Positions 2,493-41,349 of a stretch of 64,000 nucleotides of DNA are shown here, piece after piece; position 1 is the first letter of the stretch, and each line of letters begins with the position of its first letter. This stretch comes from a virus: positions 21,012-85,011 of the IMG/VR virus record IMGVR_UViG_3300020473_000024; one strand, given 5' to 3'. Made by a program: the position numbers and the translations under genes. The notes under the pieces are model-generated. The model had not been told where the DNA came from and did no database searches. It saw only the letters and a list, made by a program, of their open reading frames with translations.

Positions 2493-3342
2493 TTAATGGC
2501 ACTGCGCCCAGTTGCGCCCCAGCTGGTAGCCAGCGGTGAGGTCAACACGTAAGTTATAGAACTTACCTCCTTCTTCGATAGACTTAACTGCTAACTCTCC
2601 AGCTCTGCTGTAGCCACACCACCAAACTCCGTTGGCGTGTCCGATATCACTAAACACCTTCCCTGTAGATTCCTCCATCTGAGCCTTCCACTCCTCAGCT
2701 TCTTCCTCAGACTTGAATGACTTAATCTTAACGTTACGGGTGTGCTCTTCCATCTGACTTTCATCATGGTAAAATATGATAGCCTCAGCTTCAAGGTTTT
2801 CATCTCTCACCCAACGATCCCAGTAGACAGCGGCACGTTTCATACAGATAACGCCAGCTGATTGGAATAAAGTATTTACTAGGCTGTGTCTAGAACGAGC
2901 CATAAGCTTTCTTCCATCAACACCCACTATAAACTTCTTATCGTTGTCTGTCCAGTGTTTTTCTAATGCTTTCTTTAAAAGAGCAAGAGGCTTAGAAGCT
3001 TCCCAAAATGCGTTGAATACACGTTGAGCATGATCCAAACTCCATCCCATTTGTTTAGCAATCTTAGGTGGTTGAGCACCATAAGAGGAGCTATACTTTA
3101 ATACTTTAGCACTATCCCGATCCACCCCCATTTTTTCAGCATTAACAGAATGTATGTCGTGTGGCTTAGGAGATACCAGTGCTTTGGCATACTCCTTCCC
3201 GTTGTAAGGAAGACAATAGTGAGCCTCTACACGAGCTTCCAAACCATCAGCATCACAACCTATCTGAACACTACCTTTTGGAACACAGAACATGCTCCTC
3301 ATAGGCTCTCCATACAAACTCGTAACACGGGGGATATTTGCA
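2493..3342 (-). CDS. DNA polymerase family A, exon 2 (palm and fingers)
   Basis: C-terminal 283 codons of the T7-like polymerase. After the splice junction the frame reads ANIPRVTSLYGEPM. Motif A is GCDADGLEARVEAHY (catalytic Asp), motif B is DRDSAKVLKYSSSYGA (fingers Lys/Tyr) and motif C is YHDES (second catalytic Asp). The open frame upstream of the junction belongs to the intron. Joining 4564 to 3342 restores one reading frame: 1625 + 850 nt gives 825 codons, an 824-aa product. The junction is inferred from group I rules and frame. Confidence 0.9.
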
Positions 3343-3350
3343 CTTTATAT

Positions 3351-4250
3351 TCACTCAAAGTCGCTAGCTTTGAGCCGTTCTCGTAAGCAAGAATGAAAGT
3401 ATCTCCGAGTTGTTATCTCTTGTATCTTAAGTTCTTTAGAGATGTCTCCAAGAGATTTACCCTCTAGGAACATCCTTACTATAATACAACCCAGTTCATC
3501 TTTTGTATAACCCAGATCAGTTGCTACTAGAAACCTTCTATTACCTTTGTCTAGATAACATCCTAACAACCTTCTAGCAGAGAAGTAGCCAATATTCATG
3601 GTCTTAGATATCTTCGTTAAAGTAGCACCTAAGGCATACATCTTTCTAACAACATAAGGATCTGTGTTATTGATCTCTTGATTGAATAGAGACATGTCTT
3701 GTTTGCTTATGTAGACTTTTGCAAAATGCCTGTGTCTACCAAGATCCCTAGATATTTTTGCGAAAGAGTACCCCTTTAGTGACTGCTTGTAAATAAACTC
3801 TGCAAGAAAAGAGGAATCTTTAAACCCTAGCGACTCTGCTGTCCTGTCCCTTTTTGAAGAGGAACTCTTACAGTTGGCGACATCTTTCAATGTCTCTCCA
3901 TACCTGTTAACAACCTTGTCTTGCGCCATTGTGTGCAAAGATTGATTACAGAGATTATAGTAGAGAGGGTTATTTGCGGCATCAACTTGCTCCAACAACT
4001 CCACTTCTTTTTTGGCAACAGCTTCTCTACTACCTTTAAAGAGGACTTCAACAGAGAATCTATCTCCTCTAGAGAAATCTTTAAAATACTGGACACTGGC
4101 AGAGCTAGACCAATATTCTTTATCCTCTCTGTTACACCAAATAATCTCCTCTCCCTCGATAGAGACAATATCACATTCTTGTTTCATACCTATGTAATAT
4201 TTAGGTTTCGCGTCTTCTCTTTTATTAACTAATCTGTATACAATATTCAT
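3351..4250 (-). CDS. intron-encoded homing endonuclease, GIY-YIG-like
   Basis: 299 aa. The N-terminus reads VYRLVN...KYYIGMK, a variant GIY-YIG motif. A conserved-looking Glu (KKEVELLEQ, about residue 86) and YYNL follow, as in this nuclease family. The C-terminal two-thirds hold at least three helix-turn-helix-like repeats (SFAKISRDLG, TLTKISKTMN, SLGDISKELK) that would recognise the target site. Such enzymes cut intron-less alleles so that the intron is copied in. Start at 4250 has an AGGAG site. The gene has its own promoter inside the intron (4330-4358). Confidence 0.82.
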   Translation of the reverse strand: MNIVYRLVNKREDAKPKYYIGMKQECDIVSIEGEEIIWCNREDKEYWSSSASVQYFKDFSRGDRFSVEVLFKGSREAVAKKEVELLEQVDAANNPLYYNLCNQSLHTMAQDKVVNRYGETLKDVANCKSSSSKRDRTAESLGFKDSSFLAEFIYKQSLKGYSFAKISRDLGRHRHFAKVYISKQDMSLFNQEINNTDPYVVRKMYALGATLTKISKTMNIGYFSARRLLGCYLDKGNRRFLVATDLGYTKDELGCIIVRMFLEGKSLGDISKELKIQEITTRRYFHSCLRERLKASDFE

Positions 4251-4329
4251 TCTTGCTCCTAACTGCTTACAGTTTCCTGTAAGAATAGACTATATCTTTG
4301 GTATATTAATAATAAACCGACTTACTATT

Positions 4330-4358
4330 ATTATACCACAGCCTGTTTCGATTGTCAA
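4330..4358 (-). promoter_or_regulatory. perfect consensus sigma70 promoter inside the intron
   Basis: Minus strand: TTGACA at 4353-4358, exactly 17 nt, TATAAT at 4330-4335, with TGTGG in front of the -10. It is placed to transcribe the homing endonuclease (start 4250) and lies in the intron between P7 5' strand and P7 3' strand, probably in an extended P8 loop. Confidence 0.85.
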
Positions 4359-4563
4359 TGTTCTATAAGAACAGGAGCTTACAATCTACGCCTTACGGCT
4401 AGTCGTTGAACCTTCTCCTATTCGGAGCTTGGCGGCTGATCACCCAATCTTCTACATTTTCAGACATTCACGCCTAGGCTTATTTCATCCTTACGTTGTA
4501 GTTGTAGAAGCTCTAAGGGCTTCCCAGCAATTAAAGCTGTTTTTTACGTGAGGCTAGCAATTA

Positions 4564-6188
4564 ACCACACGGTGTTGGAAACGCGATGTGTTGCACCCGC
4601 ATGTATCCGCTGACGTAGGCAATCTACCATCATACTCCAGACGTGGATGGGCTAGGAAGCCTGTTCCATTAGGACTTAGTATGCTATTGCGTCTATGGCG
4701 GTAAGTCAACCAATGAACAATATCCTTGACATAAGCATATCTCTTACCCAACAACTCCAAGTTAGGGCAAAGCTTCTCCTTGTCGTCTCCATCAGTGTAA
4801 ATAGGCTGTGTAATAACCTTAAGGGGTCGAGAGAGATCGTGGTTTATCAGCTTATCTCTCATCTCCGCAATAGAGTTGACTTTTAAATGTTCTAATCGGA
4901 AAGGCTCTAGAGGACTATCTTTTGTCTCATCTATGTACCTCTCACAACTCTCTAGGAACTTAACACGGTCTAGTTTACGTTTCTTGCTGTCAAGAGTCAG
5001 GTCTTTATCTTTAAACGCAATAGGATTCCACCCCTGCCCTACAAGGTAAGATTTAATATCCCCTTGGTTAGCCAAGCGCATAGGCTCAGTCATAGGAGGC
5101 ATTTTCTTATCCTTAAGATCCTTTAAAGCCTGTTCCATCATCTCAGGGGGTAGAGGTTGCATTTCACCTTTCTCCCTGCTCTTCCTAATAAAATCTGGCA
5201 TGTCCTCTGGGTCAGTGATACCAGCTTGTTCACAGTATCTCTCCCCAGCCTTACTAATCGATCCATCTTGTTTAAAAGCTGTCTTAGGAGGAGCTTTAAA
5301 CTTAAGTACCTCGTTGTCCACAGGATACCCCAACTTCTCCAACCACGACCAACCATGACTACTAATCTCCCCATTGTCGGTGAAAGGTTTAGCAGGATAA
5401 CTAGGCTGTCTACTAGGAGGTAGTGGTCTAGGAGGTAATTTAGGCTCTACAACAGACTCTAATCGTTCCATTTCAGCATTAAGCCACTCCAAGTTTTCTT
5501 TGGCTAGCTGTTGGTCAAAAAAGAAGCCCTTTTCCTCACTACGTGATACTATCTCAGCAATAGCTTTTTCAACCCAATAGGCTTGATCCCAGTTCCAATT
5601 ACCTTTCTCTTGGATGAGGTATTGGTAGACTTTCTCGTTTACTTCCACATCTCGAATACAATATTCGAGCATTTCAGGGTGGTATACAGCAAACTCAGCA
5701 CCCTTGGGGTCACTGGGTGACACTAATCCCAACTCTTCGGCTTTAGCTCTCCAGTCAATCTTAGGCAATCCTAAAATCTTACCAAAGTCGTCTATTGAGT
5801 GACCCAACCTATCTGGGTTCAATGTTTTAGACAGCACAAGGGTGTCTTCAATAAAACAAGGCGATCCCTCTATTGTGTCCTCTAATGACCAATTATTAGC
5901 CTCAGCCTCTTTAGGATCACAGGTATCGGCTACTGTGAAACTAATGCCTAGTAGCTTACTACAAGCTCTTAAGTCATAGTTAATTATGTTGTGACCTATT
6001 AGGACAGAACACTTCTTCAAAAACTTGCTGAACATATTCAAAGGGAACTCACACTCAGGGTGATCCCCGAATGTGAAGATCTCCTTCGTATCAATATCTT
6101 TAGCAACAATACAGTGTATTTCTGTAATAGGATCTTCAACGTTAAGTAAGCCATTACCTTCTATATCAAATACGGCTCTTCTTCCCAT
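4564..6188 (-). CDS. DNA polymerase family A, exon 1 (3'-5' exonuclease and N-terminal part)
   Basis: 541 codons plus 2 nt. MGRRAVFDIEGNGLL carries the DIE exonuclease motif seen in T7 polymerase, followed by IGHNIINYD at about residue 70-80 (exo II type). The C-terminal end, NTSRFQHRVV, is the conserved stretch just before motif A. A longer open frame begins at 6242, but AAGGAG sits 7 nt before the ATG at 6188, directly after the helicase stop at 6199, so 6188 is the start. Spliced product 824 aa, somewhat longer than T7 polymerase. It replicates phage DNA together with the helicase gene just upstream. Confidence 0.9.
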
Positions 6189-41105: not shown

Positions 41106-41182
41106 TGGTGGGTCGAGAGGGATTTGAACCCCCGATCCACTCGTTAAAAGCGAGTTGCCTTACCAGACTTGGCTATCGACCC
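41106..41182 (-). tRNA. tRNA-Lys (TTT)
   Basis: Full cloverleaf: acceptor GGGTCGA/TCGACCC, anticodon stem ACTCG/CGAGT with loop CTTTTAA, T-loop TTCAAAT, CCA encoded. Last tRNA of the leftward cluster, 46 nt upstream of the endolysin start. Confidence 0.93.
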
Positions 41183-41187
41183 TGATT

Positions 41188-41262
41188 TGGAGCTTGCTGG
41201 GGGTTACGATCCCCCGACCTCTGCTTGGAAGGCAGATATTTTACCAATTAAACTAAGCAAGC
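41188..41262 (-). tRNA. tRNA-Gly (TCC)
   Basis: Acceptor GCTTGCT/AGCAAGC, anticodon loop CTTCCAA, discriminator T, CCA encoded. The T-loop is ATCGTAA: positions 54 and 58 are A and T instead of T and A. Confidence 0.92.
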
Positions 41263-41267
41263 CAATG

Positions 41268-41344
41268 TGGTGCGCCAAGGCGGTTATGATCCGCTCCTAC
41301 TCCTAGTTATGAGCTAGTTGCTTTCCCGATTAAGCTATTGGCGC
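41268..41344 (-). tRNA. tRNA with CAT anticodon (Met elongator or Ile2)
   Basis: Acceptor GCGCCAA/TTGGCGC, anticodon loop CTCATAA, CCA encoded. The anticodon stem begins with an A-G mismatch. T-loop ATCATAA shows the same A54/T58 exchange as tRNA-Gly. Confidence 0.9.
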
Positions 41345-41349
41345 GAAAA

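What the first reader, a model, noticed from the sequence alone, without database searches (positions are those of the whole stretch)
3343..4563. Group I intron in the DNA polymerase gene, placed just before motif A
Exons join at GTGGT|TGCAAATATC to restore VVANIPRV, the most conserved stretch before the palm. Frame arithmetic works (1625 + 850 = 3 x 825), the 5' U and 3' G obey group I rules, and P7 and P9 are visible. Polymerase genes are known homes of such introns in other phages, which protects the insertion from clean loss.
Basis: partly seen in the sequence, partly recalled or inferred. Interest (0 to 1): 0.66.

Follow-up and report, generated by a model that had tools for sequence, protein, structure and literature searches.

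The report
Mobile self-splicing intron in phage polymerase
A phage DNA polymerase gene is interrupted by a self-splicing RNA intron carrying its own DNA-cutting enzyme gene; this is a well-known kind of selfish element, though this one sits at a site not previously listed and carries an enzyme type not reported in phage polymerase introns in the papers read here.

Summary
The finding is correct and can be called a group I intron by computation. Rfam RF00028 matches its whole length on the minus strand (69.9 bits, cut-off 50, E 1e-15). The closest polymerase relative (66% identical protein) has an empty site that aligns without a gap through the junction. It is most likely a GIY-YIG-type homing endonuclease with tandem helix-turn-helix DNA-binding units. 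Its only relatives found (27-28% identity) lie in group I introns of other phage DNA polymerase genes, 14 nt upstream of the homologous position. The site (E. coli Pol I codon 676, after its second base) is one nucleotide from the phiL7 intron site and close to the SPO1/Bastille/Pf-WMP3 site (674). Related polymerases carry other group I introns and intein-like insertions in motifs A, B and C. New member of a known kind. Splicing and endonuclease activity are not shown.

The parts
4564..6188 (-). DNA polymerase A exon 1 (541 codons + 2 nt; N-terminal part)
   Evidence: phrog_17 DNA polymerase E 9e-57; start MGRR shared with relative L083
3343..4563 (-). group I intron, 1221 nt, begins UAAUUG, ends UAUAAAG
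   Evidence: RF00028 69.9 bits; splice-pair enumeration; empty site in L083
2493..3342 (-). DNA polymerase A exon 2 (motifs A-C)
   Evidence: Pfam DNA_pol_A E 1e-12; phrog_17 E 1e-47
4564..4571 (-). P1, exon arm CGUGUGGU
   Evidence: pairs with 4554-4547, 7 of 8 incl. U.G at the splice site; in the MFE fold
4547..4554 (-). P1, internal guide sequence GCCUCACG
4557..4560 (-). P10, intron arm UUGC (pairs with exon GCAA 3341-3338)
   Evidence: sequence; positions
3338..3341 (-). P10, 3' exon arm GCAA
4536..4540 (-). P3 5' arm ACAGC (3' arm GCUGU 4342-4338)
   Evidence: the two arms change together in most related introns
4338..4342 (-). P3 3' arm GCUGU
4524..4529 (-). P4 5' arm UGCUGG (3' arm UCAGCC 4439-4434, one mismatch)
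4434..4439 (-). P4 3' arm UCAGCC
4442..4520 (-). P5 and its extension (CUUCUACA 4510-4503 / UGUAGAAG 4456-4449, with the CUACAACGU...GCGUGAAUGU motif shared by related phage introns)
4415..4427 (-). P6a CUCC-GAAUA-GGAG
4400..4404 (-). P7 5' arm GACUA
4288..4292 (-). P7 3' arm UAGUC
4350..4399 (-). P7.1 (GCC-GUAA-GGC), GUA linker, P7.2 (GAUUGU/ACAAUC): IA2 signature
   Evidence: criterion from PMC3428280
4300..4337 (-). P8 (GGUAUA.../...UAUACC)
4266..4283 (-). P9 CUUACAG-GAAA-CUGUAAG
   Evidence: both arms change together in relatives
4256..4260 (-). Shine-Dalgarno-like AGGAG, 5 nt after the last base of P9
3351..4250 (-). 299-aa ORF, probable GIY-YIG-type homing endonuclease with C-terminal tandem helix-turn-helix units, between P9 and the 3' splice site
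   Evidence: phrog_7504 homing endonuclease E 1.2e-8; relatives in polymerase introns of 10AMN and L121; HTH helices in the model and by Cbp1 match

Best explanation
Window 4563-3343 (-) is a mobile group I intron (IA2 type) in the family A DNA polymerase gene of a tailed phage. In the transcript it folds through P3-P9, holds the 5' splice site in P1 (CGUGUGGU/GCCUCACG, U.G at the cut), removes itself by guanosine-initiated transesterification and joins the exons with the help of P10, giving an 824-aa polymerase. Unspliced message would run only V-N-C into the intron before a stop, giving a fragment without a palm, so splicing is needed for replication. The ORF behind P9 is translated from its own ribosome-binding site and most likely cuts the intron-less polymerase allele of co-infecting relatives near the junction, so that repair copies the intron in (homing). 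Shown here: RNA family, splice sites, exon continuity, empty site in a relative, homology of the ORF to other polymerase-intron ORFs. Inferred: splicing itself, endonuclease activity and cleavage position.
For: Full-length RF00028 match. Precise exon junction, best of 25 possible. Ungapped empty site in the 66%-identical relative L083 and an unbroken frame over this spot in nearly all of the other polymerase loci collected. P1, P10, P3-P9 all located; P3 and P9 arms change together among related phage introns: P3 ACAGC/GCUGU, ACCC/GGGU, CUCC/GGAG, CCAA/UUGG; P9 CUUACAG/CUGUAAG, CUGCAUG/CAUGUAG, CUCAUAG/CUAUGAG. ORF: homing endonuclease family phrog_7504, full-length relatives only in group I introns of DNA polymerase genes. 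Nearest ribozyme cores (Str-PAP-1 85% over 149 nt, LP14, CB457P1) carry phrog_314 (GIY-YIG-family) ORFs behind P9.
Against: No RNA or cDNA data. P4 has one mismatch (U-C). Pfam's GIY-YIG domain does not match the ORF, its first motif reads IVY rather than GIY, the usual catalytic Arg after YIG was not recognised, and the structure model of the nuclease part is poor, so the nuclease class rests on homology and motif only.
Confidence: 0.95

Rival explanations
1. A group I intron that still splices but whose ORF is no longer an active endonuclease (post-homing decay), so the element is now immobile.
For: Usual catalytic Arg not recognised; no Pfam GIY-YIG match. Decay after invasion is a usual fate of such genes (general knowledge of homing cycles).
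Against: ORF intact over 299 codons with a ribosome-binding site; the full-length homologues in 10AMN and L121 are equally intact and share the same motif pattern (Y5, Y19-I20-G21, R75-E76, E82).
Confidence: 0.2
2. A non-splicing insertion: the polymerase is made as two proteins, as a split gene, with the remnant intron between.
For: Exon 2 contains a downstream in-frame start (TTG at 3317); some phages have split replication genes.
Against: All ribozyme elements and both splice-site rules are intact; the part of exon 2 before 3317 (ANIPRVTS) is as conserved as the rest and would be lost.
Confidence: 0.03
3. An intein (protein splicing) rather than an intron.
For: Intein-like insertions do occur in related polymerases at other positions (L058, L065, L072, L076, L080, L081).
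Against: The frame from exon 1 stops after V-N-C in the insert; the ORF inside starts with its own AUG after the ribozyme; RF00028 match.
Confidence: 0.005

Closest known systems
Group I intron of Xanthomonas phage phiL7 DNA polymerase (E. coli site 676)
   Same: Same gene, almost the same site: phiL7 inserts after the third base of codon 676, this one after the second (my reading; site number from PMC3428280).
   Different: phiL7 carries an HNH ORF inside the core (Rfam 31.7 bits); different exon and guide sequence.
Group I introns of SPO1, SP82, Bastille (I-HmuI, I-HmuII, I-BasI) and Pf-WMP3 (I-PfoP3I), site 674
   Same: Introns in phage family A polymerase genes, a few nucleotides away; the Pf-WMP3 intron is IA2 and also starts UAA (PMC3428280).
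   Different: HNH endonucleases; in Pf-WMP3 the ORF begins in P6a, here it follows P9.
Group I intron of Vibrio phage 10AMN DNA polymerase (annotated only as hypothetical proteins) and the phage-like contig L121
   Same: Homologous 295-aa ORF over full length (27-28% identity), same architecture, 1224 vs 1221 nt, same gene.
   Different: Inserted at TGTLRS|SHRIWVNAP, 14 nt upstream of the homologous position; cores only 60% identical.
Group I introns of phages Str-PAP-1, LP14 and CB457P1 with phrog_314 (GIY-YIG) ORFs
   Same: Closest ribozyme cores; ORF behind P9.
   Different: Other host loci; ORFs only remotely related to this one.
T4 td intron / I-TevI
   Same: GIY-YIG type nuclease with a separate DNA-binding part in a phage IA2 intron (general knowledge).
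   Different: ORF position and DNA-binding part differ (general knowledge); no I-TevI structure was matched by sequence.

Membership tests
Group I intron | Covariance-model match over the whole catalytic core above the curated cut-off | tested here: met
   RF00028 1-253/253, 69.9 bits vs 50
Group I intron | U before the 5' splice site paired to G of the guide sequence (P1); terminal G | tested here: met
   CGUGUGGU/GCCUCACG, 7 of 8 pairs, U.G at the cut; intron ends G
Group I intron | P7 pairing (pseudoknot) and P3/P8 around it | tested here: met
   GACUA/UAGUC, ACAGC/GCUGU, GGUAUA/UAUACC
Group I intron | Exact excision restores the host protein; empty site exists in relatives | tested here: met
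   L083 aligned ungapped through the junction
Group I intron | Self-splicing with guanosine | not testable with these tools
   no RNA data
Subgroup IA2 | P7.1 and P7.2 linked by GUA | tested here: met
   GCC-GUAA-GGC, GUA, GAUUGU/ACAAUC at 4399-4350 (criterion PMC3428280)
GIY-YIG homing endonuclease | N-terminal Y and YIG motifs near residues 5 and 20 | tested here: met
   IVY (Y5) and YYIG (Y19-I20-G21), conserved in both relatives
GIY-YIG homing endonuclease | Catalytic Arg and Glu and the GIY-YIG fold | tested here: inconclusive
   E82 conserved, Arg not recognised; Pfam GIY-YIG does not match; model of this part mostly below pLDDT 60
GIY-YIG homing endonuclease | Match to homing endonuclease families | tested here: met
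   phrog_7504 1.2e-8; relative 10AMN also phrog_314 7e-7; phrog_314 proteins bear GIY-YIG domains in PMC11878797
GIY-YIG homing endonuclease | Cleaves the intron-less allele near the insertion site | not testable with these tools
   needs biochemistry

The most novel reading that the evidence does not exclude
The window and 10AMN/L121 introns are one mobile lineage that has moved 14 nt along the same conserved polymerase patch, the endonuclease and the ribozyme's guide sequence having adapted to a neighbouring site, instead of two independent captures of the same endonuclease family.
Probability: 0.25. Interest if true: 0.5.

Novelty: new member of a known kind. Interest (0 to 1): 0.33.

Why it matters
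It adds an insertion site (codon 676, after its second base) and a probable GIY-YIG-type endonuclease to the known set of phage polymerase introns. In the Bastillevirinae survey (PMC11878797) the ORFs in polymerase introns fell into HNH, LAGLIDADG and domain-less endonuclease clusters. Together with its relatives it shows several closely spaced insertion points around and within motifs A, B and C of one polymerase family, used by both group I introns and intein-like elements, which is useful for testing why mobile elements choose active-site codons.

Tried and rejected
Close-relative searches of viral contigs with exon 2, with the ORF and with the two-ORF alignment found nothing; the polymerase alignment found 64 loci. 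DNA pattern scans for the 5' and 3' junctions found no polymerase intron at this site. L058, which is broken close to this site, is an intein and not an intron. The single-sequence structure model was unusable (pLDDT 38); with one relative the helix-turn-helix half is fair (about 60-88 by block) and the nuclease half poor; Foldseek gave no match below E 0.001, the best being a CRISPR repeat-binding protein (2lvs, E 0.06); VIA-align matches were to common HTH domains at Z under 8, and no GIY-YIG chain was listed. A first impression that the Shine-Dalgarno sequence lies inside P9 was wrong: it begins 5 nt after P9. The automatic search for P3 arms picked a doubtful 3' arm for LP14 and CB457P1 and failed on SP-15; these were not used.

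Full report
What was checked. The window is 64,000 of the 85,011 bases of a virus record. On the minus strand, exon 1 (6188-4564, 1625 nt) and exon 2 (3342-2493, 850 nt) join to an uninterrupted 824-aa family A DNA polymerase with TSRFQHRVV|ANIPRV at the junction. Exon 2 matches Pfam DNA_pol_A and both exons match phrog_17.

Is it more than chance? Rfam's group I intron model matches 4592-4266 (-) from its first to its last position at 69.9 bits, E 1.1e-15 in 64 kb, and it is the only such match in the whole record. The 306-nt core folds with z = -3.75 against shuffles and the fold shows P1, P3, P4, P8 and P9.

Anatomy. P1 pairs exon CGUGUGGU (4571-4564) with GCCUCACG (4554-4547), with the U.G pair at the cut. 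P10 pairs UUGC (4560-4557) with exon GCAA (3341-3338). P3, P4, P5 with an extension, P6/P6a, P7, P7.1-GUA-P7.2, P8 and P9 follow. The P7.1-GUA-P7.2 arrangement is the IA2 criterion used in PMC3428280. The frame of exon 1 closes after V-N-C in the intron, so unspliced message gives a truncated protein. The P3 and P9 arms differ between related phage introns but change together, which is evidence for the helices independent of this sequence.

The empty site. L083, a 4-kb viral contig with a polymerase 66% identical in protein, aligns at DNA level through the junction without a gap. Phages 11895-B1, PAc, 254, UAVern and JG004 and nearly all of the 64 polymerase loci found in viral contigs are unbroken there; L058 has an intein nearby.

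The ORF. It matches phrog_7504, homing endonuclease, and its C-terminal half is helix-turn-helix (HTH_23 below cut-off, Cbp1 model E 1.6e-7; helical units modelled with fair confidence). Only two relatives were found: Vibrio phage 10AMN and phage-like contig L121 filed in a Flavobacteriaceae MAG. Both are full-length (27-28% identity), both lie behind P9 of a group I intron (68.9 and 70.8 bits), and both introns interrupt a DNA polymerase gene at TGTLRS|SHRIWVNAP (SHKIWVNAP in L121). For that site the intron-less Vibrio phage qdvp001 reads TGTLRSSHRIWVNAP, exactly the predicted joined product of 10AMN. Counting codons between the shared GR and LYG (33 residues in both polymerases), that site is 14 nt upstream of the window's.

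Sites in context. PMC3428280 lists polymerase introns at E. coli positions 674 (SPO1, SP82, Bastille, Pf-WMP3), 676 (phiL7) and 881 (PhiI, W31). Anchored on NIP, the window's intron lies after the second base of codon 676; phiL7's lies after the third base by my reading of its sequence. Among relatives of this polymerase there are also a group I intron within motif A (L077), group I introns at the motif C HDE (L067, L068, L070, L077, L079; the same gap with an HNH ORF in L005/KLEP7, where Rfam did not score an intron; L078 has the same gap but was not scored), a group I intron (L071) and intein-like insertions (L072, L076, L079-L081) at the same KYG spot of motif B, and intein-like insertions at two further places (L058; L065 and L075). 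The intein calls rest on an open frame with Cys at the start and Asn before Cys or Thr at the end, and were not tested further.

How it works. The RNA removes itself from the polymerase message; the ORF product most likely cuts intron-less polymerase genes of co-infecting phages and so spreads the intron. The first step is strongly supported by anatomy; the second rests on homology and position.

Novelty. Group I introns with endonuclease ORFs in phage DNA polymerase genes are long known (PMC3428280, PMC3984707, PMC11878797). New here are the exact site, the ORF family in a polymerase gene (in PMC11878797 GIY-YIG ORFs were in ribonucleotide reductase and thymidylate synthase introns), and its sister element 14 nt away. 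Only open-licence papers could be searched, so an earlier report of this site or ORF type may exist. I file it as a new member of a known kind.

Noticed in passing
window 43203-43317 (-): tRNA-like gene with about 41 extra bases in the anticodon arm (Rfam tRNA 49.2 bits; not called by ARAGORN). A 60-80% identical stretch occurs in Vibrio phages nt-1, KVP40 (annotated 'tRNA-Pseudo') and phi-pp2, so the odd form appears conserved.
   Followed up: partly
window 41106-41506 (-) and 47138-47375 (+): Two tRNA clusters: Lys, Gly, Met, Ile, Arg and Met, Pro, Asn.
   Followed up: no
L089, reverse strand near base 1548: Group I-like insertion with the same 17-base 5' junction string GTGGTTAATTGCTAGCC in a gene that looks like Ro60/TROVE; the ORF behind it looks like LAGLIDADG with an in-frame TGA, suggesting TGA is read as Trp.
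   Followed up: partly
L122 (Pseudoalteromonas phage PH357): DNA polymerase is interrupted by a stop-containing insertion at GATFG|(V)IFGCSG (motif B); annotated as a shortened polymerase.
   Followed up: no
L071 vs L072, L076, L079-L081: The same motif B position (KYG) holds a group I intron in one phage and intein-like insertions in others.
   Followed up: partly
L121: Phage-like contig (primase/helicase-like gene followed by an intron-bearing polymerase) filed in a Flavobacteriaceae MAG; 78% identical at DNA level to Vibrio phage 10AMN.
   Followed up: partly
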